From Thermotomaculum hydrothermale (GTDB taxonomy: Bacteria > Acidobacteriota > Holophagae > Thermotomaculales > Thermotomaculaceae): DNA of 64,000 nucleotides. Shown here piece after piece: positions 5,471 to 33,260 of this stretch. The DNA is taken from positions 1,932,501 through 1,996,500 of the forward strand of contig NZ_AP017470.1 of NCBI RefSeq assembly GCF_016592575.1. The letters are read 5' to 3'. The position numbers and the translations under genes are program-made. The notes beneath the pieces were generated by a model. It had not been told where the DNA came from. It searched no databases and worked only from the letters and a program-made list of their open reading frames with translations. Every line of letters begins with the position of its first letter. Within the stretch, counting starts at the first letter, position 1.

Positions 5471-6703
5471 ATGGATGAAAAAGCAAAAATAAAGGCTTAT
5501 TTCAAAGAAAACGAGGGGAAAATAAGGGATAAAATTGTCTCTCTTGTTAGAGAAATGGTAAAGGAAAAAACTGTAAATGTTGTTTCAGAAAAGTTGAGCG
5601 AGCATCCCTACCTGAAATTTAGAGGCGAGGAGTACAGGGTAGGAAATATTGTTAAAAGGGAATTTGAGGAGCACAACATCCCATATGACGAATTTGCAAG
5701 AATGGAGGGAAGACCAAACATAATAGGTAAAATAGGGAAAGACAAAAACGGGAAAAGGCTTTTTATGGCCGCACACATGGATATTGTCCCTGCTGGAGAT
5801 GGCTGGGACACTGACCCATTTGAGGTTGTTGAAAAAGACGGAAAACTTTATGGAAGAGGAACCCTTGACAACAAAGGACCGCTTGCCTCAATAATTGTTG
5901 CTGGAGAGGTTTTGAAAGAGCTTGGAATTGAACTGGAAGGTGAGTTACAATTAGCTGCACTGTCAGACGAAGAGGCTGAAGACCCTGATGGGATTGATTA
6001 CGGGATAGGATACCTTCTTGAAGAAAAACTAATAAATCCAACTTTTGCAATAATCCCTGACATAGGTGAAAATATGGAGAGGATTGATATTGCGGAAAAG
6101 GGAAGAACTGTTTTTAAGGTTACTGCCCACGGGAAACAGGCGCATGGTTCCACCCCTGAAAAAGGAATTAATGCAGTTTATATGATGGCAAAAATGGTGT
6201 GTGAAATTGAAAAATTAAAGTTTGACTACACTGTTCATCCTGTTTTAGGAGACCCAACTTTAAATTTAGGAGAAATTCACGGTGGGGCAGCGGCAAATAT
6301 TGTCCCAGGCCAATGCGAGATACTGCTTGACATAAGAACCGTCCCTGGAATGACAAAAGAGCAGGTTATAAAAAAACTTGAAGAATGCGCCGCAAAAGTA
6401 GAAGGTGGAAAATTTACAATTGAATGTATGAGCTGGAATGAGCCTCATGCAGTTGACCCTGACAATGACCTTGTAAAGGCAATTCAGATAAATACAAAAG
6501 AAGTACTGGGATTTGAACCAGAACCTTTTGGAATGGGTGGAGGCACTTTTGCCAAAACATTAAATATATACGGTGTAACTGCAGTTGGCTGGGGGCCTGG
6601 AGATGATGAAGCCTTTCATGTTGCAAATGAATATGTTGAAATCAAACAATTAATTGACTTTGCTCTTCTAACCTGTCTGGTTGCAATTGATTTATTAAAT
6701 TAA
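5471..6703 (+). CDS. M20 family metallopeptidase (ArgE/DapE/PepV type)
   Basis: Cytoplasmic zinc-dependent peptidase or deacylase of 410 residues. The metal-site signature is complete: MAAHMDIVPAGDGWDTDPF around 98-116 (first His, bridging Asp nearby in GRGTLDNKGPLAS), then ALSDEEAED supplying the catalytic Glu pair, and a C-terminal His in DEAFHVANE. A dimerisation domain starts at EKGRTVFKVTAHGKQAHGSTPE. No signal peptide is present. Length and motifs fit the M20A subfamily that includes ArgE, DapE and dipeptidases; no neighbour belongs to arginine or lysine synthesis, so a dipeptidase is as likely as a biosynthetic deacylase. AAGGAG precedes the ATG. It stands alone, with its own promoter and a terminator after the stop. 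Confidence 0.85.
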   Translation: MDEKAKIKAYFKENEGKIRDKIVSLVREMVKEKTVNVVSEKLSEHPYLKFRGEEYRVGNIVKREFEEHNIPYDEFARMEGRPNIIGKIGKDKNGKRLFMAAHMDIVPAGDGWDTDPFEVVEKDGKLYGRGTLDNKGPLASIIVAGEVLKELGIELEGELQLAALSDEEAEDPDGIDYGIGYLLEEKLINPTFAIIPDIGENMERIDIAEKGRTVFKVTAHGKQAHGSTPEKGINAVYMMAKMVCEIEKLKFDYTVHPVLGDPTLNLGEIHGGAAANIVPGQCEILLDIRTVPGMTKEQVIKKLEECAAKVEGGKFTIECMSWNEPHAVDPDNDLVKAIQINTKEVLGFEPEPFGMGGGTFAKTLNIYGVTAVGWGPGDDEAFHVANEYVEIKQLIDFALLTCLVAIDLLN

Positions 6704-6736: not shown

Positions 6737-7630
6737 ATGATTGAAAGATTTGCAAATTACCTTATGTCAGAAAGAGGGCTTTCAAAAAACACTGTTGAAT
6801 CGTATCTTTTTGACTTAACCCATTTTAAAGAATTCCTTGAATTAAACAAAATTAATATTGCAAAGGTAAAGGAAGAGGATTTAACTGGTTATATAGCCTA
6901 CCTGTATAATTCAGGTTATGCCCCCATGACTATAAAAAGGCATGTTGCAACACTGAGAAGCTTTTACAAATTTTTATTTAACGAAGGGGAGATAGCCTCC
7001 AACCCTGCTGAAATTTTAGAAACTCCCAAAGCATTCAAAATGCTCCCAAAATACCTGACAGATGAAGAGGTTGAAAAACTGTTAAATTTACCTGATATAT
7101 CAACCCCAACTGGACAGAGAGACAAAGCAATGATTGAGTTGCTTTACGCAACAGGATTAAGGGTATCAGAGCTAATAGATTTAAAGATGAACAACCTTAA
7201 TTTAGAGGAAAGATTTTTAATAACAATAGGCAAAGGCTCAAAAGAAAGGCTTGTGCCTTTCAGCAAAAAAGCATACAATTGCCTGAAAGAGTATATAAAT
7301 GATGGCCGGCTTAAATTATTAAAGGATAAAAAAAGTTATTTTCTCTTTCTCAACACAAGAGGAAACAAAATCACAAGGCAGGGATTCTGGAAAATACTTA
7401 AAGCGTATGGGCAAAAATTAGGAATTGCTCATAAACTTTCCCCGCACACTTTAAGACACACCTTTGCTACCCATTTGCTTGAACATGGGGCAGATTTAAG
7501 GGCAGTGCAGATTATGTTAGGCCACTCTGATATATCAACCACCCAGATTTATACCCATATTACCAATGAAAGACTAAAACAAATTTACTTTAACTATCAC
7601 CCAAGGGCTAAAAAGAAAGATAAAGATTAA
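6737..7630 (+). CDS. xerD: Tyrosine site-specific recombinase, XerD-like
   Basis: Chromosome-dimer resolution recombinase that acts at dif during division. Residues 1-85 form the SAM-like core-binding domain (MIERFANYLMSERGLSKNTV), and the catalytic domain carries Arg in LLYATGLRVSELI, Lys in IGKGSKERLVPF, HTLRHTFATHLL, the second His in LGHSDISTTQ, and the tyrosine nucleophile in IYTHI. HGADLRAVQIMLGHSDIS resembles XerD more than XerC. At 297 residues it is full length. There is no Shine-Dalgarno sequence: the ATG follows the T-tract of the upstream terminator, so expression may depend on read-through or an unrecognised promoter. It converges on ssb with a four-base overlap at the 3' ends. 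A phage-type integrase is less likely, given the housekeeping-length protein and lack of phage neighbours. Confidence 0.82.
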   Translation: MIERFANYLMSERGLSKNTVESYLFDLTHFKEFLELNKINIAKVKEEDLTGYIAYLYNSGYAPMTIKRHVATLRSFYKFLFNEGEIASNPAEILETPKAFKMLPKYLTDEEVEKLLNLPDISTPTGQRDKAMIELLYATGLRVSELIDLKMNNLNLEERFLITIGKGSKERLVPFSKKAYNCLKEYINDGRLKLLKDKKSYFLFLNTRGNKITRQGFWKILKAYGQKLGIAHKLSPHTLRHTFATHLLEHGADLRAVQIMLGHSDISTTQIYTHITNERLKQIYFNYHPRAKKKDKD

Positions 7631-22801: not shown

Positions 22802-23852
22802 CTATTGTTTCTCCATAAATCCTTTTCTTAAAATATAAAGCAAGGTCAACAAGCAAAATCATAACAGGCACTTCAACCAATGGCCCAATAACAGCAGCGA
22901 AAGCCTCACCTGAATTTATTCCAAAAACAGCAACCGCAACCGCAATAGCCAGCTCAAAGTTGTTAGACGCAGCAGTAAAACTTAAGGTTGTATTTTTCGG
23001 ATAATCTGCACCCGCTTTTCTTCCCATATAAAACGACACAAGAAACATAATTACAAAATAGAGAAGCAATGGAATTGCAACCTTAACAACATCCATTGGG
23101 ATTGAAACAATAAGCTTACCCTTTAAACTGAACATAACAACAATAGTAAAGAGAAGAGCAATTAAGGTGATAGGTGAAATCTTTGGCACAACAGTTTTAT
23201 GGTACCTTTCCTTTCCCATTGCTTTAACACCAATATACCTTGTCAAAGCACCTAAAATAAAAGGAACACCTAAATAAATAAAAACACTCTTTGCAATTTG
23301 CGACATTGTAACATCAACCTTAGTCCCTTCAAGCCCCAATTTTTCAGGTAAAACAAGGAGAAAAACATATGCATATACAGAGTAAAAGAGAACCTGAAAA
23401 ATTGAGTTAAAAGCAACAAGCCCCGCAGCGTATTCAGTATCCCCTTTTGCAAGTTCATTCCACACAATAACCATTGCTATACACCTTGCAAGCCCTATCA
23501 AAATCAATCCGTTCATATACTCCGGATAATCCCTCAAAAACACAACAGCAAGAATAAACATTAAGACAGGACCAACCAACCAGTTTTGAATTAAACTTAA
23601 AGTTAAAACCTTTGTGTTTTTGAAAACATCCGGCGTCTCTTCATACTTAACCTTTGCAAACGGAGGGTACATCATTAAAATAAGGCCAATTGCAATAGGA
23701 ATATTTGTCGTGCCAATTGAAAAGCTATTTATAAAATCTTTAAAAGATGGAACAAAATAACCTAACCCAACCCCCAAAAGCATTGCAAGGAAAATCCATA
23801 AGGTTAAATACCTATCAAGAAATGACAGCTTTTTTGCAACACCATCTGTCAT
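22794..23852 (-). CDS. acr3: Arsenite efflux transporter Acr3
   Basis: Inner-membrane As(OH)3/H+ antiporter of the bile/arsenite/riboflavin superfamily with ten predicted helices. Family hallmarks are [19 protein letters not shown], the thiolate-bearing [19 protein letters not shown] (Cys about residue 123) and [20 protein letters not shown]. 352 residues is normal. It starts four bases inside the end of arsC. Exports the arsenite made by ArsC. Confidence 0.95.
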
Positions 23853-24274
23853 AAACGCTCCTCTACAATCTTTCTTAAATCGTTTTTTACAAAATACTTA
23901 ATTAAATCTCTAATCTTTCTAAACTCATTTAACACCTCTTTCCTGCTTCCCTTTGCCTTTGCAGGATCTTTAAAGCCTTTGTGAAAAATAAAGGCCTTTT
24001 TTAAATAGGCAGGACAATTTTCGTGGGCATCTCCGCATAGGGTTATTACAAAATCAAAATCAATATCCCCCAATTCAGCAAGAGTCTTTGAGTAATGCCC
24101 ACTCATATCAATATTGTCCTCTTTCATAATCTCAAGCATAAAAGGATTAAGCCCATGCTTTTCAGTCCCGGCAGAGTAAACCTCAACAAGGTCTGATAAA
24201 TACTTTTTCCCATAGCCCTCAGCCATCTGGCTACGGCATGAATTCCCGGTACACAAAAATAAAAGTTTTTTCAT
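23849..24274 (-). CDS. arsC: Arsenate reductase, thioredoxin-coupled (LMW-PTP type)
   Basis: Reduces arsenate to arsenite with electrons from thioredoxin. The phosphatase-like P-loop is [14 protein letters not shown] (nucleophile Cys9-10 region), and the two resolving cysteines are in [11 protein letters not shown] (about 81 and 88), the feature that separates this ArsC from ordinary LMW phosphatases. It is the first gene of the operon; SD sequence GAGG lies six bases before the ATG. Confidence 0.95.
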
Positions 24275-24365: not shown

Positions 24366-26243
24366 CTAATTATTGTTTTTAACAACAATAGGAGATTTTA
24401 ACGACTTGATATACTTTTTATAAGCCTTTCTGTAACTTTTGTAATCTGAAGAAGGAATTCTCATTGCTTTCCTTACATACACCGCTTTGGCAATTATCTT
24501 TCCATTAGAAAACTCAATATGGCGGTTAAAAGAAAAATATTTGTTGTCTATTGACACATCCTGAGGTAATTTAACAATTGTGTAACCATCAGGCAAAACC
24601 CATTCGGCATTTCTCTCAAAAGTCAATTTTTTACTAAAAACAATATCAACTTTTCTGGTTCTTTTTCTAAAAGGGTTTTTATATTTACTTGTCATCGGGA
24701 AAGGAATTATCAGAATCCCATCTGTTGTTTTTATTCCGTAATCAATTGCACTTACCCAGTAGGTGGTTTCAACGGTATCCAGTCCGTTTTTCACCTCTTC
24801 GTCATCCAATTTAGCCCCCATAATTTGGTCCTGAATAAATTCGTTATACTTTTTAGTTTCATTATCCTCATTTATTCCATCTAAAAACCACTTCTCAGAA
24901 TAGGCTGGCAAACCTTTTTTAAATTCGGCAATTACAAAAGAGGCTGAATTGTTCTTGTTAAGCTTACACTTTGAAACAATTCTCACTTTGTTTTCCTTTT
25001 CAGAAAAAACAGGCAATTTAATCAGTTTTCCGCCATCTCCTAAAACAAGCAAACCGTAAGTACCCTGTAACGCAGAAGGGAAAAATGGCGGTTCGGTAAT
25101 TCTATCAGTAACATCAAAGATTAGATAGGGTGTACCGTCTATTGTTAAATTCTTTAAATTTGCAGTTTCATTATCAAGTTTAACTGCAACAATAACATGG
25201 TTGAATTGAATACCGGGGAAATCCGGGTAAACCTGCCCATAAATATACCCTTTAGCCAGAACAGGGTATGCATCAAACCCTAAATTCTTTAGCAGATTTA
25301 TTGCCAGAAAACTTTTATCCTTACAATCTCCATATTTTCTGTCAATAACGAAACTGCATTTTTTAGGGACAATCCTTCCGTTTCCCAGTTCTATATCAAC
25401 ATAATTGACTTTTTTAGCCACAAAATCGAGAACCTTTTTTACTTTCTCGCTTTTTGACAATTCTCCTGAAAGCTCAATAGAAGATGTGTCTGTAAGATCT
25501 AACGAAAGCCTTGCAAGTTGCCAGAATTTTTTCGCAACTTCTTCCCATGAATTTTCATCACCTGTGAAGCATGCAGCAACAACAGGATAGAGGTCAGTTT
25601 TAGGTGGCATATTTTTTCTATCTTTTATGTATTCAACATTTTGAATTTTAAAAATATCTCCATCTCTTTTTACAATTCCATTTTTGTCATTCAACACAGC
25701 AACCTTTTTTGCACCTTTAACCTCTATTTCACTTTCCAGAATATCTCCGTCCTCTCCGAAGCTTAAAAAATAGTCCTGAAATAAATCCTTCTTTTTAAGC
25801 TCAAATTCAAGAATTATCACATCCCCCTTTTCAAGAGAATCAAAGGTAACAACAAGCTTTCGGCTATCATCGACAAAATTCTCACTTAATGCCAGGTCTG
25901 TCATATCCTTTATTTTATAACGCTCTCTAACCATTCCTGTGCCATCAAGCCTGTAAACAACTGCCTTCACAACTGTGTCACTGGCATTATAAGGAATTGC
26001 AACAGTTGAATAATCAACAGTGCCTTTAATGTTTTCGATTTTTACCATTTTTTTCAAACTGTATAGAACAAAATCACCATCCTTTTCCAATTTTGTTTTT
26101 TCGTAAAGAAACCTGACAGGGGCACCGCTATCAGTTTGCCCCTTTATATATTTTACAAAGTAAGGCTTAGCCCAATCAGGCATACTCCTTGCCAAAACAG
26201 ATATTGAAGCAAACAAACAGAAAATTATTAGAAGTTTTTTCAT
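24366..26243 (-). CDS. DUF3857/transglutaminase-like secreted protein
   Basis: Periplasmic protein of 625 residues with a signal peptide (about 1-18, ISVLARS). DUF3857 spans about 55-220. The transglutaminase-like core follows with an intact Cys-His-Asp triad: Cys307 in YGDCKDKSF, His349 in FNHVIVAV, Asp377 in IFDVTD. A C-terminal beta domain (DUF3858-like) ends the protein. Its substrate is unknown; such proteins usually act on peptides or proteins in the envelope. ATGA overlap with the upstream gene at 26240-26243 couples their translation. Confidence 0.8.
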   Translation of the reverse strand: MKKLLIIFCLFASISVLARSMPDWAKPYFVKYIKGQTDSGAPVRFLYEKTKLEKDGDFVLYSLKKMVKIENIKGTVDYSTVAIPYNASDTVVKAVVYRLDGTGMVRERYKIKDMTDLALSENFVDDSRKLVVTFDSLEKGDVIILEFELKKKDLFQDYFLSFGEDGDILESEIEVKGAKKVAVLNDKNGIVKRDGDIFKIQNVEYIKDRKNMPPKTDLYPVVAACFTGDENSWEEVAKKFWQLARLSLDLTDTSSIELSGELSKSEKVKKVLDFVAKKVNYVDIELGNGRIVPKKCSFVIDRKYGDCKDKSFLAINLLKNLGFDAYPVLAKGYIYGQVYPDFPGIQFNHVIVAVKLDNETANLKNLTIDGTPYLIFDVTDRITEPPFFPSALQGTYGLLVLGDGGKLIKLPVFSEKENKVRIVSKCKLNKNNSASFVIAEFKKGLPAYSEKWFLDGINEDNETKKYNEFIQDQIMGAKLDDEEVKNGLDTVETTYWVSAIDYGIKTTDGILIIPFPMTSKYKNPFRKRTRKVDIVFSKKLTFERNAEWVLPDGYTIVKLPQDVSIDNKYFSFNRHIEFSNGKIIAKAVYVRKAMRIPSSDYKSYRKAYKKYIKSLKSPIVVKNNN

Positions 26244-28195
26244 TCTATCTCCCTTAAAACAACCTTGGGATTTGACGCTGCCAACAATTCGTCAAATAGC
26301 GTTTTAAACTGCCAGACAGCTGTTTTGGGATAAACACTATATTTATTCTGCTGGAAAACTTTTACTTTAAATGTTTTAGAATCAAGTTTTGAGTATTCTG
26401 TTTTGTAAGAAAACCCGAGACGGCTTACAGTTTTTGCTTCCGGAAGGGTATTTATCTCAATATCTTCAGGGAGATGATAGGTAATTTCACATTTTTGTTG
26501 CTCAGGATATTTAAAAATAATCGGCGAATACCTTTTGTCAACGGCAAATGGATTTTCATCATACCTTGGAAACAATAAAGGCTTAAATATCAGGTTATCA
26601 CCTAATTCCTCAAACTCATAGGGGTAGGAAAAAGAGTATTCAACAATTAGAGGTTTATTATAAACCTTTAGATTTTTTAATTTAAAATCAATTAACTTAG
26701 CATCGTCACCAAATTGCTCTTGAATTGTTTGCTCAAAAATTTCTCTTATTTGCTTATCATTTAAAAACAATGCATAACTTTTCAAATTGTAACTTTCATA
26801 GAAATTCAAAGTTTCAGTTGCTTTCACTGTCATCTTTTCATCCCCTAATGTAACATCCATAACACTCTCACTTACCGCTTTATCTGCTGGCATATCTTTT
26901 ATTTTTTCAAAAGAAGCTCCGTTTTCACTAATAAAATAGATTTCAGTATTTCTGGCACCGTAAGGGATATACCCAAAAGGCAGCATCCCTTTGCCAGGAG
27001 CAAGGTAATAGCTTTTGCCTCCAACCTCAACCTTTAACAACCATTCTTCAAACTGACTTAATGTTCTCATTGTTCTCAAAAATTTCCCACTATCCCAGGG
27101 GACATATAGCCCAATACTTATCTTTGCGTCAGGAATTGCATTTTTTATAAAACAAAGGGTTAATAGATCAATTTGCAGTTCTGTAAGGTAAGGCAAGTTT
27201 ACAATCTTTTTCACCTTTATATCCGCCTTTGTAACCTTCTTTAAGTATTTTTTTGTTAAATTCTCTCTCTCAGATTTGCTTAACATATAAATAGACTTGT
27301 AATGAGTTACAACATAATCATATATATCCTTTAAAATCTGCTCATTGGTTTTTCCCTGTACCCCTATTTCATTTTTCAATATCTTCTTTATTGTCCTATT
27401 TGCTTTTAAAAATTTCCTGCCCTGGTAATCGAAAAAGTTAGTTGCTGTTTCCTGCCAATAATAACCGGGGTTAAGCATGTAAGAGGTGTAATAAAAAATA
27501 ATCTGCTCCCTCAATGAAGAATATGGGTAAGAATAATCTTCTTTGGGAAGCCCTGGAATATCGGTAAACACAATATTAACAATCTTTTTATCCTTCTGTT
27601 TATCTTCTGTAATCTTAGGACGCTGGTGCAAATTATCTCCAGTATATCCCCAGGTCATATACGAAGGGGCAATAAACTTCAATTCACATCTTTTAGTATA
27701 AACCTCACCCTGAGAATAAAATCTGTTTATTTCCCTTATGTAATCTTTAATTTTGGAAAAAGAATACTCAACTACAGAGCCTTCAACAAGAGAAGGGAAA
27801 GCAAAACTAATCTCTACTACTTTTTCTCCCCATTTCTTTGCAACATCTTTTTTTACAATATCAGCATCCTTTAATTTATAAATCTTTCCATCGGGAGACC
27901 AAACTATTGCTTTTAAGTCCTCTATCTTTTCCTTTTTAGGGTTGTAATAAATCTTTACATTTTTAAGGTCGTCAATCCCTTTTTTGGTAAAAACTTTAAA
28001 TTTCACATAGTACTCTTCTTTAGATTCTTTTTTTGTATAAGTATCATCTACCACAACCTTCCTTAAAATTACTATTGCATCTTTTCCACCCTTAAAAGGC
28101 TCAGGTTTTAAATTTTTGTCAGCATCGGTAATTTCCGCAACACTCTGAAATGCAAATAAAAAAAGAAAGAAAACAAAAAAAATTCCCTTTTTCAT
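26240..28195 (-). CDS. DUF3857 secreted protein, transglutaminase core apparently inactive
   Basis: 651-residue paralogue of the next gene with signal peptide (about 1-19, FQSVAE). It has the same DUF3857-then-transglutaminase layout: VKFKVFTKKGIDDLKNV at the N-terminal part, then EQILKDIYDYVVTHYKSIYM opening the core. The expected GDCKD catalytic segment reads NLPYLTELQIDLLTL and no matching His/Asp positions are evident, so the enzymatic triad seems lost. It likely serves as partner or adaptor of the active copy. GGAGG lies six bases before the ATG. First gene of the two-gene transcript. Confidence 0.7.
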   Translation of the reverse strand: MKKGIFFVFFLFLFAFQSVAEITDADKNLKPEPFKGGKDAIVILRKVVVDDTYTKKESKEEYYVKFKVFTKKGIDDLKNVKIYYNPKKEKIEDLKAIVWSPDGKIYKLKDADIVKKDVAKKWGEKVVEISFAFPSLVEGSVVEYSFSKIKDYIREINRFYSQGEVYTKRCELKFIAPSYMTWGYTGDNLHQRPKITEDKQKDKKIVNIVFTDIPGLPKEDYSYPYSSLREQIIFYYTSYMLNPGYYWQETATNFFDYQGRKFLKANRTIKKILKNEIGVQGKTNEQILKDIYDYVVTHYKSIYMLSKSERENLTKKYLKKVTKADIKVKKIVNLPYLTELQIDLLTLCFIKNAIPDAKISIGLYVPWDSGKFLRTMRTLSQFEEWLLKVEVGGKSYYLAPGKGMLPFGYIPYGARNTEIYFISENGASFEKIKDMPADKAVSESVMDVTLGDEKMTVKATETLNFYESYNLKSYALFLNDKQIREIFEQTIQEQFGDDAKLIDFKLKNLKVYNKPLIVEYSFSYPYEFEELGDNLIFKPLLFPRYDENPFAVDKRYSPIIFKYPEQQKCEITYHLPEDIEINTLPEAKTVSRLGFSYKTEYSKLDSKTFKVKVFQQNKYSVYPKTAVWQFKTLFDELLAASNPKVVLREIE

Positions 28196-28377
28196 GTGAC
28201 CTCCACAACTTTTAAATATAAAAATTATTTTAAAGAAGGGACTTAAAAATTCAAGTAAAAAATATGAACAATTTTTAAATTTTTAACACAGCTAAGAATC
28301 TGTAACAAAAAAGAATGAATTAAAACACTTATAAGCAAAAAACAAGAAAAAACACCGACAAAAAATTAAACCTTTTT

Positions 28378-28484
28378 CTAATTATAATACAAAAATTTTA
28401 CCAGCATTTCGGCAATTTGTTTATCTTCTGGTTCGGTGATTTTGATGTTGAAATGCCAGTCTTTTACAGGGAATTTTGAATAGA
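28378..28484 (-). pseudogene. Displaced 3' end of an ispD gene (ghost copy)
   Basis: On the minus strand this stretch reads in frame as an IspD C-terminus without a start: PVKDWHFNIKITEPED, KQIAEMLVKF, LYYN and a TAG stop. The real IspD ends PIKDWHFNIKITEPED, KETAEMLVKL, LQTE. It lies 3.37 kb from the intact gene in the same orientation, and the SIR2-like gene ends inside it. It is best explained as the original or foreign ispD 3' end separated by insertion of the intervening genes. Confidence 0.75.
28397..28471. repeat. Direct repeat, left copy (ispD 3' end)
   Basis: 75 bases matching 31765-31839 at 69 of 75 positions, same orientation. The differences respect the IspD reading frame (several are third-position changes), so the two copies probably diverged as functional alleles. 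Together they flank the SIR2/UDG island. Confidence 0.9.
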
Positions 28485-29390
28485 TTTAATTATTTCACCG
28501 TATGAACATTCATAGCTATTATCTTTTAACTTATAGGGTTTAATTGTTACCCCATAAGATTTTAAAAGAGAAAGTTTTGCTTTTTCTTGTTTCGTCTTTT
28601 TCTCTGAATTTTCAATATAGTGATAAACTGTTTTGCTAATGTTCTCTTTTTTCTGTCTAAGCTTTTCTTTATAAATAGTAAGCCACCATAAATCAATCTC
28701 TGTATAATCAAAAGAAAATCCAACTATGTGTACATCACAACCAAGAAAAAGGTCAACCCATGAATATTTTTCATAATTCTTTATTTCATTTATAGAAGCT
28801 TTAGGATTTGGAGAGAAAAAAGGAGAAATTATATTTTCGCCATCTTTTCTGGGGATTCCTGTTGTTAGATAATTCCTGATTTTCTGTATATAACCAACAT
28901 AATGCTCGTGTCCAAACGTAATACTATTAGGAACATCTGCTTCTCCATGAATATGCCACACAAACTTTTCCCCACATTTTCTTCTTCTAAACATACTGTA
29001 TTTTGTTTCTCTAAAAACATTTGCAGTTCTCATTTTTTCATTACTTTTAATGTTCTCATTTTTAGAATTTTCAATATTATAGTCATAATTTGTTGTTAAT
29101 ATGTGAGTTGCTCCTATATTGCAGAATTTCTCATGAAATTCATTAGGTTTTAAATTTTTAACCAAATTAGCAATTGTTCTCTTCAACTCTATTTCTTTAT
29201 TATTCTGTGATTTCATTGCCCTTATAGCAATTTCTTCAAAAAGCAAAGTAAAAGGTTTTTCTTTTTTATTCTTTATTACTTTTTGTAAGTTAATTTTCTT
29301 TATTAAATCGTCCAGCAAATTCTCCCAGGAATAGTTTGTTTTTAACCTATTGATACCATTACCCAATAGCAATACTTTATCTGTACTCAT
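28464..29390 (-). CDS. SIR2-like domain protein, putative defence NADase
   Basis: 308 residues, cytoplasmic. The SIR2_2-type Rossmann core is visible: VLLLGNGINRL at 6-16, LTTNYDYNIE with Asn101 and Asp103, HIHGE with His148, and DVHIVGFSFDYTEID near 225-240. Asn and His are the positions needed for NAD+ hydrolysis in ThsA-like effectors, so NADase activity is plausible. SIR2-domain proteins of this kind are frequent in antiphage systems (Thoeris, DSR and others), but no ThsB-type TIR partner or Argonaute is here. GGGGGAG precedes the ATG. Very A+T-rich and Lys/Asn/Ile-rich relative to neighbours. Its last codons lie in the ispD repeat, so its 3' end was formed at the junction or reaches into it. 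Confidence 0.72.
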   Translation of the reverse strand: MSTDKVLLLGNGINRLKTNYSWENLLDDLIKKINLQKVIKNKKEKPFTLLFEEIAIRAMKSQNNKEIELKRTIANLVKNLKPNEFHEKFCNIGATHILTTNYDYNIENSKNENIKSNEKMRTANVFRETKYSMFRRRKCGEKFVWHIHGEADVPNSITFGHEHYVGYIQKIRNYLTTGIPRKDGENIISPFFSPNPKASINEIKNYEKYSWVDLFLGCDVHIVGFSFDYTEIDLWWLTIYKEKLRQKKENISKTVYHYIENSEKKTKQEKAKLSLLKSYGVTIKPYKLKDNSYECSYGEIIKSIQNSL

Positions 29391-29553
29391 AAAACTCCCC
29401 CTTTATTAAGCATATTTAACTTCCAAACTAAAATTTGCTACCAAAGACTATATTTTACATCTCACAACCGTTAGAATCCGTTTTAGTTCAAGAATCTTTT
29501 TAGCCATGCATTAAATTTTTATCAATTATTCCTCTTTAATGTTTTTGCTTGAT

Positions 29554-29581
29554 TTAATATAAACATTAGAAAACCCATCAA
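29554..29581 (-). promoter_or_regulatory. Possible promoter of the SIR2-like gene
   Basis: Minus strand TTGATG (29581-29576), 16-base spacer, TATTAA (29559-29554), within the 228-base gap between the glycosylase and SIR2 genes. It would give a leader of about 155 bases. In A+T-rich DNA this can be chance. I saw nothing else definite in the gap. Confidence 0.25.
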
Positions 29582-29618
29582 GTATAAACAATCTTATAAC
29601 CTCAATATTTGCTTATTA

Positions 29619-30242
29619 TTAGATATTAGTATCATATAATTTTAACATTCCTTTAATAAAATCTTTTTTGCCACCATAGGAAGGATGACGAATGTAAATT
29701 ATTTCTTGAAAAGGGAATAATTGGCTTAATACTGCTTCACCAACCCTTCCAATAGCTGCAATCTTTTGAGGTTTAAAGATTTCATAAACCATTTTTAAGT
29801 ATTTTAGCCCCTCTTCAATTTCCTTTTCCCTTGGCTTTCTGTTACTTTCATCAACCCCTTTTTCATGTGGATGAAATGGAAAAGCATTCCATAAAATAGG
29901 TGCTGGTTTGTTGTATTCAATCAAAAAACTCCAGAGTATTGTTGCTGTGTTTTCTGAAACACTTTCTGATTCTTCATGGATTAGGTTAATTTTATCTCTT
30001 AATTTTTTGAATATTTCGTGTTGAGAATATCTTATTATAGTTTCACTTGTAAATGGAATTCCTGTCAACCGACATCCCCTGTATCCAGGAGCCTCACCAA
30101 CCAGGAGAATGCGCGAATTATTTTCTAAAAGATATTCAAAATATAACCTTAAATTATTAAGCATATATTCATTTTGATATGGATTAAATACTTCATTAGA
30201 TGATTTTTTATTTAACAACATTTCTAACAATTCATTTAACAC
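29619..30242 (-). CDS. Uracil-DNA-glycosylase-superfamily protein
   Basis: Predicted DNA glycosylase of 207 residues. Motif A ILLVGEAPGYRGCRLTGIPF (46-64) and the late RHPSYGG (184-190; His185) mark the UDG fold. Between them, ILWNAFPFHPH is characteristic of a widespread family annotated as uracil-DNA glycosylase. It lacks the N-terminal Fe-S cysteines of family 4/5 enzymes. It starts with GTG and overlaps the upstream Cys-rich gene by seven bases, so they are co-translated and probably act together. UDG-fold enzymes can remove modified bases from phage DNA (Brig1 is the described case); a repair role is the alternative. Confidence 0.75.
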   Translation of the reverse strand: MLNELLEMLLNKKSSNEVFNPYQNEYMLNNLRLYFEYLLENNSRILLVGEAPGYRGCRLTGIPFTSETIIRYSQHEIFKKLRDKINLIHEESESVSENTATILWSFLIEYNKPAPILWNAFPFHPHEKGVDESNRKPREKEIEEGLKYLKMVYEIFKPQKIAAIGRVGEAVLSQLFPFQEIIYIRHPSYGGKKDFIKGMLKLYDTNI

Positions 30243-30910
30243 CCTCTACTGCCTCCATAAAGATATTCAAGCTGCTTAATCCTAAAACCAGTTGATTTCT
30301 TCCCCCAGAAACAGTTTTGTTTTACCGGGCACTCATTACATATTTTATTTATCCTGCATCTCCCGGATTTAGTGGTAAGCATTTGCATAATTTTTTGCGT
30401 TTCTTTTTGATATTTTTTACTAATATTTTCATGTGAGTTTATTTTAGATTTTAAATTGTTAAGAATTCTATCCATATCATTTTTTATACTGGAATCACCC
30501 CAGCTTACAGGGACACCTCTTGCTTTATAATCTATATCAATGCACTTGTCTTTCGGCAAAAGGACTGATTCTGATGCAGAGAATCCTATTCTGGGATATT
30601 GAAAAGTATTTCCAACTTTAAAGTAACCTATAATTTTGTTTTTACTATCACCTGAAATATTTGTGTGCCGAGTATAAAAAATCACATACTTTTTGTATTT
30701 TGTAGGTTTGGAATTTTTAAGAAAATTTCTAACTTCGCGACAATGGCACCCATCATCGTAAGATAATGTTTCAAATTTAGGGTATTCGTAATGGCCAGTA
30801 TTTGTTGGATTACACATAAAGAAATCCCGGTGCATTACTTCCTTTGAGAATAAACAACAACCATTCGGCATATCAGGGAGTGAATTATAGTAAAACAAAA
30901 TCCAAATCAT
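30236..30910 (-). CDS. Cysteine-rich protein with endonuclease III-like Fe-S loop
   Basis: 224 residues, function not recognised with confidence. Near the C-terminus Cys185-x5-Cys191-x2-Cys194-x5-Cys200 (CRINKICNECPVKQNC) closely matches the [4Fe-4S] loop of endonuclease III/MutY (C-x6-C-x2-C-x5-C). The N-terminal half has five more Cys (18, 19, 33, 55, 57). The order FETLSYDDG, then YVIFYTRHTNIS, then IIGYFKVG resembles Nmad-type nucleotide-modification-associated domains; that is a weak similarity from memory. It directly precedes and overlaps the glycosylase gene. Possible roles are recognition of modified bases, or a base-modification enzyme. No HhH glycosylase core is evident. Confidence 0.5.
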   Translation of the reverse strand: MIWILFYYNSLPDMPNGCCLFSKEVMHRDFFMCNPTNTGHYEYPKFETLSYDDGCHCREVRNFLKNSKPTKYKKYVIFYTRHTNISGDSKNKIIGYFKVGNTFQYPRIGFSASESVLLPKDKCIDIDYKARGVPVSWGDSSIKNDMDRILNNLKSKINSHENISKKYQKETQKIMQMLTTKSGRCRINKICNECPVKQNCFWGKKSTGFRIKQLEYLYGGSRGC

Positions 30911-31050
30911 CTTATCATCCCTTTTTTAGTTAAAAGTCAAATTGTTATATATACCTTTACAACATAAAAAAGGTTAAAAAAACAACTCATATAAAATTGA
31001 ATTAGCACAAATTATGTCAAATATCCTTTAAAAATTAAAATCCTCACATT

Positions 31051-31509
31051 TCATTGCTTTGACTCTTGAATAGCTGCAATCTGTTCCTGGGCTCTCTTTC
31101 TAAATTCAAGCGGTGCTGCTATTTTATGAAAAGGCTCTTTTGTCCCCCCGGAACCAGTTATAATTATGGTTCCAAAATTTAATATCCTCCCCCAAATCCC
31201 TTGATTAACACTTATTGCTTCCACTTTAGTTAAAAGTATTTCAAGGGAATGTCTTCGAATAAACCCTACCTTTACAATAATTCTTTTGTTTGTCACAGCA
31301 AACTCCGAAGTGGAATATGTTATAAAAGAAAAAAGCCCTTGAAAAATAGCAAGCAGTATAAAAAACCAGCCAAACGGTGCTAACTTATTCATAAAAAAAA
31401 TAATGGCTATAAGCAAAAATAGCACTGACCAGATAAAAATAATCCAATGCAATTTTGCCTGATATACAAGTTTCTCTCCTGCCAAAAGATTTTTTTCAAT
31501 ATAACTCAT
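31051..31509 (-). CDS. bPH2 (DUF304) small membrane protein
   Basis: 152 residues with two membrane helices (about 23-43 and 47-66) followed by a bacterial PH-like domain: YSTSEFAVTNKRIIVKVGFIRRHSLEILLTKVEAISVNQ is the family signature. Its role is unknown; members are envelope proteins of the YdbS/YdbT kind. AGGAGGG lies six bases before the ATG. It is inside the segment bounded by the ispD repeats, but 140 bases upstream of the Cys-rich gene, so it may be an unrelated passenger. Confidence 0.75.
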   Translation of the reverse strand: MSYIEKNLLAGEKLVYQAKLHWIIFIWSVLFLLIAIIFFMNKLAPFGWFFILLAIFQGLFSFITYSTSEFAVTNKRIIVKVGFIRRHSLEILLTKVEAISVNQGIWGRILNFGTIIITGSGGTKEPFHKIAAPLEFRKRAQEQIAAIQESKQ

Positions 31510-31745
31510 ATTTTCCCTCCTGTTAGATAAACTAAACTTTATTTAAAATAAGAATTTTTTAGATATGCACCATTTGCTATTCTTTTATTTATTAGCAAGT
31601 GATAAATTTTACTTTTCGTAAAAAAATCAAACATCTTTCTGCACCTAATTCGATTTGTTTTTATATAAAGAATTCTAATACTTAACTAATAAAAAAGCAA
31701 ACGGTTTTTTTAAAAATTAGATAGGCTGGATTATAAATGAAATTA

Positions 31746-32435
31746 TTATTCAGTCTGTAATAACTTTACCAGCATTTCGGCAGTTTCTTTGTCTTCAGGT
31801 TCGGTGATTTTGATGTTGAAGTGCCAGTCTTTTATAGGGTAGGGGTTATAGCCGAATTCGGTTAGCATTGTGGATTCATCTGTGTAAAAGATATTTGATT
31901 TGTCAAAACAGTCTTTCAATATCCCAAGCCTTGCACCCTGCGGGGTTGTTACAGTTACAAGGTCTTTTCTTATTAGTGTTTCATAAAATCCGTCATCATT
32001 TAGCCTTCTTACCGTCCCGCTTATGGGGATAAAGGGCACGGCACAACCTGTTTCAGCAGTTTTTTCAATTATTTTTTTTACAACTTCCAAATTCAAAAAA
32101 GGCCTTACTCCGTCGTGAACAATTACAACCTTTGATTTGTCTTCTTCTTTTTCGTAGATAAAGTCAATGGCATTTTTAACAGAATGGAATCTCTCATTTC
32201 CCCCTTTAACCAGATAAACAGGAAAAGAAAAATAATTGGTTAAGTATTCGCATTCTTTTTTAAAATCACCTGGATATGTTAAGACACAGTACTGAGGTTT
32301 TATTTTAGAGAAAAAGCCTAATGTTAACTCAATAAGCCTTTTGTCCCCTATTTTTTCAAACTGCTTGGGATATGGCTTGCAAAACCTTCTCCCTATTCCC
32401 CCAGCCGTGACAATTAAAATGTAATTTCCTTCCAT
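31746..32435 (-). CDS. ispD: 2-C-methyl-D-erythritol 4-phosphate cytidylyltransferase
   Basis: Third step of the MEP isoprenoid pathway: CTP plus MEP gives CDP-ME. The nucleotidyltransferase start reads ILIVTAGGIGRRFCKPYPKQF (usual consensus AAGxGxRMG), with VVIVHDGVRPF for metal and substrate binding, and TTPQGARLGILKD. The C-terminal DWHFNIKITEPEDKETAEMLV is the substrate/dimer segment. The 229 residues are full length. SD GGAG lies five bases before the ATG. A diverged copy of its last 75 bases lies at 28397-28471. No ispF is adjacent, although the two often occur together. Confidence 0.92.
   Translation of the reverse strand: MEGNYILIVTAGGIGRRFCKPYPKQFEKIGDKRLIELTLGFFSKIKPQYCVLTYPGDFKKECEYLTNYFSFPVYLVKGGNERFHSVKNAIDFIYEKEEDKSKVVIVHDGVRPFLNLEVVKKIIEKTAETGCAVPFIPISGTVRRLNDDGFYETLIRKDLVTVTTPQGARLGILKDCFDKSNIFYTDESTMLTEFGYNPYPIKDWHFNIKITEPEDKETAEMLVKLLQTE
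31765..31839. repeat. Direct repeat, right copy (inside ispD 3' end)
   Basis: Partner of 28397-28471 (69/75 identical, same orientation). This copy is in the intact ispD reading frame. Confidence 0.9.
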
Positions 32436-32516
32436 AAAATCTCCAATAAGGCTTGTTTCTTTTTAGATTAACTATTTTTTTCTTTTAAATCAAGTGATAA
32501 GAGGGGATTTTAGGGG

Positions 32517-33260
32517 TTAAAAGACTTTTTTCGCTGTTTTTTTAAGGATAAAATCCCTGACAAATGCAGGCATACAGGATAAAAACCTTAGCACAAAATA
32601 AAAGAATTTCGGGAAAGCATACTCTTTTTTGTTTTTTTCAATTGCATACTCAATTTTGTTAAGGGCATAGTCTAACTCCATTAAAAATGGCATTTTGAAT
32701 TTATTTTTTGCAGTTAACGGGGTTTTTATAAAACCGGGCATTATGTTTATCACTTTAACATTGTGAAAATGCCCTAAGTTTCTCAATGATTCGCAGTATG
32801 AGTTTAACGCCCTTTTCGTTGATGAGTATGCAGTTGAAGAGGGGGAGGCAATGATTGAGGCAAGGGAAGAGATTACAACAGCCTTGCCCTTTTTGTTTTC
32901 AATCATTTTTTTAACAATTGGCTCTAAAAAGGCGTGTACCCCTAAAACATTTAAGTGGTAGGTTTTTTTAAAGGATTGAAAATCAGGCACCTCAAGGCCA
33001 TGCCCTGTTGAGGTGCCTGCATTTGCTATTGCAATGTCAATGAAATTTTCTTTCAAAATATCGTTTAGAATTTCCTGAAACTTCTCAAAATCAGTAATGT
33101 CAACAGGGTAAATATTCACCCTATCAGGGGCTAATTCTTTCAACTCTTCAAGCTTTTCCTTTCTCCTTGCAAATAGAAAAAGGGTGTGGCCTTTTTTTAT
33201 GTATCTTTTTGCAAGGCCATAGCCTATTCCACTTGAAGCCCCTGTAATTGCAATATTCAT
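32517..33260 (-). CDS. Short-chain dehydrogenase/reductase
   Basis: NAD(P)-dependent oxidoreductase of the classical SDR family, 247 residues. The cofactor motif TGASSGIG is at 7-14, NAG at about 78-80 (IANAGTS), the catalytic Ser in VISSLAS, and Tyr-x3-Lys as YSSTKRALNSY. The C-terminal part of about 40 residues is hydrophobic, as in membrane-associated SDRs acting on lipids. Substrate unknown. It starts eight bases after valS ends, and ispD follows in the same direction after 81 bases. Confidence 0.88.
   Translation of the reverse strand: MNIAITGASSGIGYGLAKRYIKKGHTLFLFARRKEKLEELKELAPDRVNIYPVDITDFEKFQEILNDILKENFIDIAIANAGTSTGHGLEVPDFQSFKKTYHLNVLGVHAFLEPIVKKMIENKKGKAVVISSLASIIASPSSTAYSSTKRALNSYCESLRNLGHFHNVKVINIMPGFIKTPLTAKNKFKMPFLMELDYALNKIEYAIEKNKKEYAFPKFFYFVLRFLSCMPAFVRDFILKKTAKKVF

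What the first reader, a model, noticed from the sequence alone, without database searches (positions are those of the whole stretch)
28378..31839. 3.4-kb SIR2/UDG/Fe-S island inserted at the 3' end of ispD, bounded by 75-bp direct repeats
Seen: 28397-28471 and 31765-31839 match at 69/75 positions, in the same orientation. One copy is the end of intact ispD; the other reads as an ispD end with no start, and the SIR2 gene stops inside it. Between them lie a SIR2-like protein, a UDG-superfamily glycosylase, a protein with an EndoIII-like Fe-S loop and a bPH2 protein. The SIR2 gene is A+T-rich: four hand-counted 60-base lines give 25% G+C, against 46% in two lines of valS. Inference: an accessory, defence-like cassette that uses ispD's 3' end as integration target, the ends acting as attL/attR. 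No integrase is inside, so it may be a remnant, mobilised in trans, or brought in by recombination with a foreign ispD locus.
Basis: partly seen in the sequence, partly recalled or inferred. Interest (0 to 1): 0.88.

Follow-up and report, generated by a model that had tools for sequence, protein, structure and literature searches.

The report
Foreign gene island behind ispD
A roughly 3.3-kb block of foreign genes, including a DNA-base-removing enzyme with a never-described partner protein that travels as a mobile gene cassette in archaea, was added behind the housekeeping gene ispD and left the old end of ispD stranded on its far side.

Summary
Two congeners show the insert-free site: ispD is followed directly by an arsC-like gene. 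The DUF3857 pair beyond the orphan end is also absent there. None of the four cargo genes was found in any congener searched.

The attL/attR reading is not supported. The island carries no integrase, the genome's only tyrosine recombinases are XerC and XerD, and the two ispD ends differ in a coding-like way. Addition of a donor segment by recombination inside ispD, pushing the resident ispD end downstream, fits better.

The main new point is the cargo. Protein 3 and the UDG-superfamily protein form a two-gene operon, about 60-62% identical in two archaea. There the shared DNA block begins and ends exactly at integron attC-type cores. Protein 3 matches no known family and was seen in 3 genomes in all. 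The UDG keeps glycosylase catalytic motifs but lacks the Fe-S cysteines of family 4. The SIR2 protein keeps its presumed NADase motifs.

Likely role: DNA-base excision and NAD-based defence, inferred and untested.

The parts
28378..28471 (-). orphan ispD 3' end (30 codons plus stop, PVKDWHFNIKITEPEDKQIAEMLVKFLYYN*), right-hand copy of the repeat; probably the resident ispD end
   Evidence: repeat; unique pair in genome; codon comparison
28464..29390 (-). SIR2-like protein, 308 aa, presumed NADase motifs TTNYD and WHIHG; last codons and stop lie in the ispD-derived junction
   Evidence: PF13289 4e-9, PADLOC ThsA 4e-10, PDB ThsA 0.002; relatives on a Salmonella conjugative element and a Vibrio plasmid
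29619..30242 (-). UDG-superfamily DNA glycosylase, GTG start, overlaps protein 3 by 7 nt; motifs GEAPG, WNAFPFHP, IRHPS; no Fe-S cysteines
   Evidence: PF03167 1e-10; archaeal partners 60-62%; alignment; Foldseek to SMUG1 / family 4
30236..30910 (-). protein 3: unknown 224-aa protein, near-invariant N-terminal 60 residues, C-terminal C-x2-C-x5-C; operon partner of the UDG
   Evidence: no Pfam/NCBIfam/PDB match; two archaeal homologues at 62%
31051..31509 (-). bPH2-domain membrane protein, relatives are phage accessory (moron) genes
   Evidence: PF03703 8e-15, phrog_3707 1e-35, 280 phage records, absent from congeners
31746..32435 (-). intact ispD; its last 94 nt (31746-31839) are the left-hand copy of the repeat
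   Evidence: PF01128 9e-36
24366..28195 (-). two DUF3857 genes beyond the orphan ispD end; also absent at the ispD-arsC junction of G003/G004
23849..24274 (-). arsC-like gene, right flank of the insert-free site (directly after ispD in congeners)
32517..33260 (-). short-chain dehydrogenase, left flank conserved in congeners (83-84%)

Best explanation
The segment 28472-31745 is horizontally acquired accessory DNA added at the 3' end of ispD. SHOWN: the repeat, the insert-free site in two congeners, absence of the cargo from the relatives searched, and a conserved protein 3-UDG operon in archaea. INFERRED, insertion: DNA from a related lineage carrying an ispD end plus cargo recombined with the resident ispD by homology on the ispD side and joined without long homology on the SIR2 side (homology-facilitated illegitimate recombination), or a circle with an ispD end integrated by one crossover. 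Either way ispD stays intact and the resident end is left behind the cargo. INFERRED, cargo: the UDG removes an altered base from DNA, protein 3 (probably a metal- or Fe-S-binding partner) recognises or presents the substrate, and the SIR2 protein destroys NAD+ on infection. The most likely benefit is defence against phages or other foreign DNA. SIR2 and bPH2 are probably separate passengers, not subunits of the same machine.
For: Insert-free site in G003/G004. Cargo absent from relatives: protein 3 from 60 relatives and 395 genomes of the phylum; SIR2 in one distant member of the phylum only; bPH2 in one genus of the class only; second UDG absent from G001, G003 and G004. SIR2 and UDG GC3 about 2 s.d. 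low. No integrase; tyrosine recombinases are XerD and XerC only. The two ispD ends are closer to each other (89%) than to congeners (67-74%) yet differ mainly at third positions, and the orphan keeps the congener state at three positions where intact ispD does not. An analogous architecture, with a gene's 3' end shifted behind newly inserted genes and HFIR proposed, is described in PMC5361080. Operon: same order and overlapping ORFs in L047 and L085. Glycosylase residues kept. Brig1, a UDG-superfamily defence gene, lies near a ThsA-like SIR2 gene (PMC11078745); the SIR2 here scores as ThsA-like and its relatives sit on a conjugative element or beside DUF6119.
Against: No donor locus carrying ispD with this cargo was found, so the HFIR and single-crossover routes are not separated from each other or from a lost site-specific system. 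The third-position test rests on nine differences (P=0.04). In the archaea the pair lies beside housekeeping genes, not an obvious defence island, and no SIR2 accompanies it. No phage carries the UDG or protein 3. Protein 3 has no usable structure model (pLDDT 38). No PADLOC model matches UDG or protein 3.
Confidence: 0.5

Rival explanations
1. Site-specific integrative island (or its integrase-less remnant, a cis-mobilizable element): the ispD 3' end is attB and the two repeats are attL and attR.
For: The architecture is what such islands leave: target gene restored, second end distal, one direct repeat, 3.4-kb unit; insert-free site in congeners.
Against: No integrase in the insert; only XerC/XerD among tyrosine recombinases genome-wide; mismatches spread through the repeat with a coding-like pattern; no other element at this site seen; the one literature search found no report of ispD as a target (one unrelated paper).
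Confidence: 0.22
2. Protein 3-UDG is a DNA-repair pair for a damaged base (for example deaminated bases in hot habitats), not a defence system; SIR2 is an unrelated neighbour.
For: UDG keeps catalytic motifs; Foldseek nearest SMUG1 and family 4; housekeeping neighbours in the archaea; a 42% relative stands without protein 3 in family member G005.
Against: The genome already has a strong family-4-type UDG at 1217397; very patchy distribution, 3 genomes; mobile cassette context in archaea.
Confidence: 0.35
3. Local tandem duplication of ispD with decay of one copy and later gene gain between the copies.
For: The two ends are nearest relatives of each other.
Against: Only the last 94 nt exist in the second copy, cut exactly at the end of the SIR2 gene; no 5' remnant anywhere in the genome.
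Confidence: 0.05
4. Integron integrase inserted the cargo directly as gene cassettes at a secondary site.
For: In two archaea protein 3-UDG is bounded by attC-type cores.
Against: No convincing attC site in 28000-32500 of the window; cassette insertion does not create a 94-nt copy of the target gene; no integron integrase among the genome's tyrosine recombinases.
Confidence: 0.08

Closest known systems
Orphaned 3' ends behind newly inserted modules in Vibrio T6SS effector loci, also proposed for Rhs loci (PMC5361080)
   Same: Conserved gene whose 3' end is replaced together with new cargo; the displaced resident 3' end remains downstream; no integrase; HFIR proposed.
   Different: There the target is a toxin/effector gene with selection for new ends; here it is a housekeeping gene whose protein ending is barely changed, and the cargo is unrelated to ispD.
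Brig1 / Brig3-BapA defensive DNA glycosylases (PMC11078745, PMC13160076)
   Same: UDG-superfamily enzyme as accessory gene; Brig3 is in a two-gene operon with a partner; Brig1 lies near a ThsA-like SIR2 gene.
   Different: The partner here is a Cys-rich protein of no known family, not described as a glucosyl hydrolase; sequence relation to Brig was not testable; found in archaea as well.
Family 4 UDG and SMUG1/SMUG2
   Same: GEAPG motif A with the glutamate, conserved Asn block, HPS motif B; nearest solved relatives 4zbx, 5h0j, 5h98.
   Different: No Fe-S cysteines (a single Cys), extra conserved GYxGCxxTGIPFTS, WNxFPxHP and RHPSxGGK blocks; scores below the curated family-4 cut-off.
Archaeal integron cassettes / CALINs (PMC9668308)
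   Same: In L047 and L085 the shared block begins at GTTATGC/GTTAAGC and ends at GCCTAAC/GCTTAAC, with attC-like hairpins after the UDG.
   Different: No integron integrase shown there; the bacterial copy in the window has lost or never had the attC.

Membership tests
Integrase-type genomic island (attL/attR at a gene 3' end) | target gene restored and flanking direct repeats | tested here: met
Integrase-type genomic island (attL/attR at a gene 3' end) | insert-free site in relatives | tested here: met
   G003 and G004, (DUF3857 pair also missing there)
Integrase-type genomic island (attL/attR at a gene 3' end) | tyrosine integrase in the element or the genome | tested here: not met
   only XerD and XerC; serine recombinases not searched
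Integrase-type genomic island (attL/attR at a gene 3' end) | excision / circular form | not testable with these tools
   needs PCR or reads
Homology-facilitated illegitimate recombination product | homology at one end, resident gene end left beyond the insert | tested here: met
Homology-facilitated illegitimate recombination product | donor locus with the intact joint | tested here: inconclusive
   no donor found; IspD searched in 40 relatives, cargo proteins in 58 to about 400 genomes each
UDG superfamily (PF03167) | profile match and catalytic motifs A and B | tested here: met
   1e-10; GEAPG and HPS
Family-4 UDG | Fe-S cluster cysteines and score over the curated cut-off | tested here: not met
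   one Cys only; 34.5 bits versus 125.3
Brig defensive glycosylases | sequence homology to Brig1/Brig3 | not tested
Brig defensive glycosylases | excision of a modified phage base and phage protection | not testable with these tools
   experiment needed
SIR2 defence NADase | SIR2 profile with catalytic Asn and His motifs | tested here: met
   PF13289 4e-9; TTNYD and WHIHG shared with homologues
Thoeris | ThsA SIR2 plus SLOG domain and a TIR ThsB gene | tested here: not met
   308-aa protein matches only the SIR2 part of ThsA (residues 8-176); no TIR domain among the four island genes
HhH/EndoIII Fe-S glycosylase (protein 3) | C-x6-C-x2-C-x5-C and HhH domain | tested here: not met
   first Cys not conserved; no Pfam domain
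Integron gene cassette (archaeal protein 3-UDG) | bounded by R'' (GTTRRRY) and R' (RYYYAAC) cores with attC hairpin | tested here: met
   GTTATGC and GTTAGCC depart slightly from consensus; scan alone gives chance hits about every 8 kb, so the exact borders carry the weight
Integron gene cassette (window copy) | attC site next to the genes | tested here: not met

The most novel reading that the evidence does not exclude
Protein 3 and its UDG-superfamily partner are an undescribed two-component base-excision system, with protein 3 as a new Cys-rich DNA- or base-recognition factor that supplies in trans the metal-cluster function its glycosylase lacks. The pair moves between archaea and bacteria as an integron cassette and serves as defence against DNA with altered bases.
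Probability: 0.3. Interest if true: 0.7.

Novelty: new variant of a known kind. Interest (0 to 1): 0.5.

Why it matters
It defines a conserved operon, protein 3-UDG, whose first protein lies outside every profile library searched and whose second is a testable enzyme, shared at 60-62% identity by a bacterium and archaea. The archaeal copies are bounded like integron cassettes, a concrete vehicle for cross-domain transfer. The ispD junction is a clear case of gene addition that copies a housekeeping gene's end with no integrase in evidence, a signature that would readily be called attL/attR.

Tried and rejected
Integrase-type att sites: only XerC/XerD found. Integron insertion at ispD: no attC in the island. 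Protein 3 in plasmids, phages and IMG/VR: none. Protein 3 structure: pLDDT 38, not used; PDB profile hits non-significant. A PUA/EVE-like reader domain for protein 3 was considered from its strand pattern but has no support. EndoIII-type Fe-S loop: first Cys not conserved. UDG model pLDDT 68, used only for fold class. A MazG-UDG theme: plasmid UDG relatives are operonic with MazG-type proteins, but that partner is unrelated to protein 3. Truncation of SIR2 by the junction: homologues end within a few residues, so at most a few codons are lost. Rfam and terminator scans of the island: nothing. G001 could not settle the site because its contig ends 9 nt after the IspD match.
Full report
OBSERVATION. 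The repeat is real: 28391-28471 and 31759-31839 agree at 90% over 81 nt in direct orientation, 3368 nt apart, and nothing else in the 2.32-Mb genome matches comparably. In reading frame the two ends are PIKDWHFNIKITEPEDKETAEMLVKLLQTE* (intact ispD) and PVKDWHFNIKITEPEDKQIAEMLVKFLYYN* (orphan). The SIR2 stop codon TAA is part of the ispD-derived sequence CCTGTAAAAGAC. The four genes are as described, with protein 3 matching nothing in Pfam, NCBIfam or PDB.

INSERT-FREE SITE. In congeners G003 and G004 the order is valS-SDR-ispD-arsC-arsR, with ispD and the arsC-like gene ~80-100 bp apart. The last ~70 bp before arsC align with the window's sequence upstream of its arsC at 24274. So relative to these genomes the window carries two extra blocks: the 3.3-kb island and, beyond the orphan ispD end, two DUF3857 genes. 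The DUF3857 pair is also in G001 (78% and 61%) and distantly in G005, but on contigs that do not settle its position. A simple order of events is ispD-DUF3857-DUF3857-arsC first, then the island; this order is inferred. Protein 3, SIR2 and bPH2 have no homologue in any congener searched, and those congeners in which a UDG was found have only one (G003 does not appear in the part of the SIR2 search output that is shown; G002 is 83% complete and the others 89-97%).

HOW IT GOT THERE. The island encodes no recombinase, and the genome's only two tyrosine recombinases are XerD (window 6737-7630) and XerC, both over their curated cut-offs. The nine differences between the aligned 27 codons of the two ends include six at third positions (P=0.04); five are synonymous. 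The orphan keeps the state shared by all three congeners at three positions where ispD differs; ispD keeps it at one, and matches two of the three at another. The numbers are small, but they suggest that both ends diverged as working ispD genes in separate lineages, that the orphan may be the resident end, and that at least the present end of ispD came with the island. That is what homology-facilitated illegitimate recombination, or a single crossover with a circle bearing an ispD end, would leave. The same shift of a resident 3' end behind new cargo is described for Vibrio T6SS loci, where HFIR was proposed (PMC5361080). Site-specific integration with a lost integrase cannot be excluded.

THE P3-UDG OPERON. 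A genome-collection scan found one relative of protein 3, in a Methanophagales MAG contig (62%), followed by a UDG that is also about 60-62% identical. Profile searches found no other in 396 genomes of the window's phylum or 58 of the archaeal class, and one more in 394 genomes of the archaeal phylum, again with the UDG. The archaeal pairs are closer to each other (70% and 78%) than to the window's (60-62%). The first 60 residues of protein 3 are almost invariant; near the C-terminus C-x2-C-x5-C is conserved, with further invariant Cys at 18, 33, 55, 123 and 224, so a metal or Fe-S site is likely but not of EndoIII type.

ARCHAEAL CASSETTES. The two archaeal loci are alike at the DNA level only from L047:529 to 1833 (78%), that is from GTTATGC/GTTAAGC to GCCTAAC/GCTTAAC. 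These are the R'' and R' cores that bound integron cassettes, and attC-like hairpins follow the UDG stop in both (L047:1827-1914, L085:10835-10918). A simple scan for such sites gives chance hits about every 8 kb in shuffled DNA, so the weight lies in both borders coinciding with the ends of shared sequence. Archaeal integrons and attC clusters without integrase are known (PMC9668308). The window copy has no convincing attC.

FUNCTION. The UDG keeps motif A GEAPG, the Asn block and HPS, so it is probably active, but lacks the Fe-S cysteines of family 4 and scores far below that family's cut-off. The genome has another, ordinary family-4-like UDG. The SIR2 protein keeps TTNYD and WHIHG; its best relatives (37-38%) sit on a Salmonella integrative conjugative element that also carries a DGQHR gene and dndE, and on a Vibrio plasmid beside a DUF6119 gene. 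Brig1, a defensive UDG-superfamily glycosylase, also lies near a ThsA-like SIR2 gene (PMC11078745), and Brig3 works with an operon partner (PMC13160076). Defence by base excision plus an independent NADase is therefore the leading reading; DNA repair is the main rival. bPH2 relatives are common phage accessory genes.

LIMITS. Serine recombinases were not searched, the protein 3 model is unusable, and nothing functional is shown.

Noticed in passing
L047:449-535, L047:1827-1914, L085:10835-10918: attC-like integron sites around the archaeal P3-UDG block; a pRiA4 ORF3-like gene follows as the apparent next cassette in the Methanophagales contig, with a further possible degenerate site after it.
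   Followed up: partly
L060:3778-5657, L086:2796-4621, L088:2637-4546: Plasmid relatives of the UDG in Sphingomonas, Rhizobium and Bradyrhizobium overlap a nucleoside-triphosphate pyrophosphohydrolase gene (MazG plus MazG_C in the Sphingomonas copy) by 4 nt, near thymidylate synthase, dCTP deaminase or a Shedu gene; their motif A has decayed to IARDLGYRGG.
   Followed up: partly
L055:7995-8945: The nearest SIR2 relative lies inside a Salmonella Infantis integrating conjugative element that also carries a DGQHR gene and dndE.
   Followed up: partly
window 24366-28195: A DUF3857 gene pair is present or absent at the ispD-arsC junction within the genus, so this junction varies independently of the island.
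   Followed up: partly
window 31539-31634, - strand: A 31-codon ORF (MFDFFTKSKIYHLLINKRIANGAYLKNSYFK) between ispD and bPH2, possibly the remnant of another gene.
   Followed up: no
L092:7357-8741: A tyrosine recombinase split over two frames about 18 kb from the P3-UDG block in archaeon G472; not shown to be an integron integrase.
   Followed up: no
L041 (G001:C115) end at 6089: The G001 contig breaks 9 nt after the IspD match, as it might if a repeat lay there; not resolvable from this assembly.
   Followed up: partly
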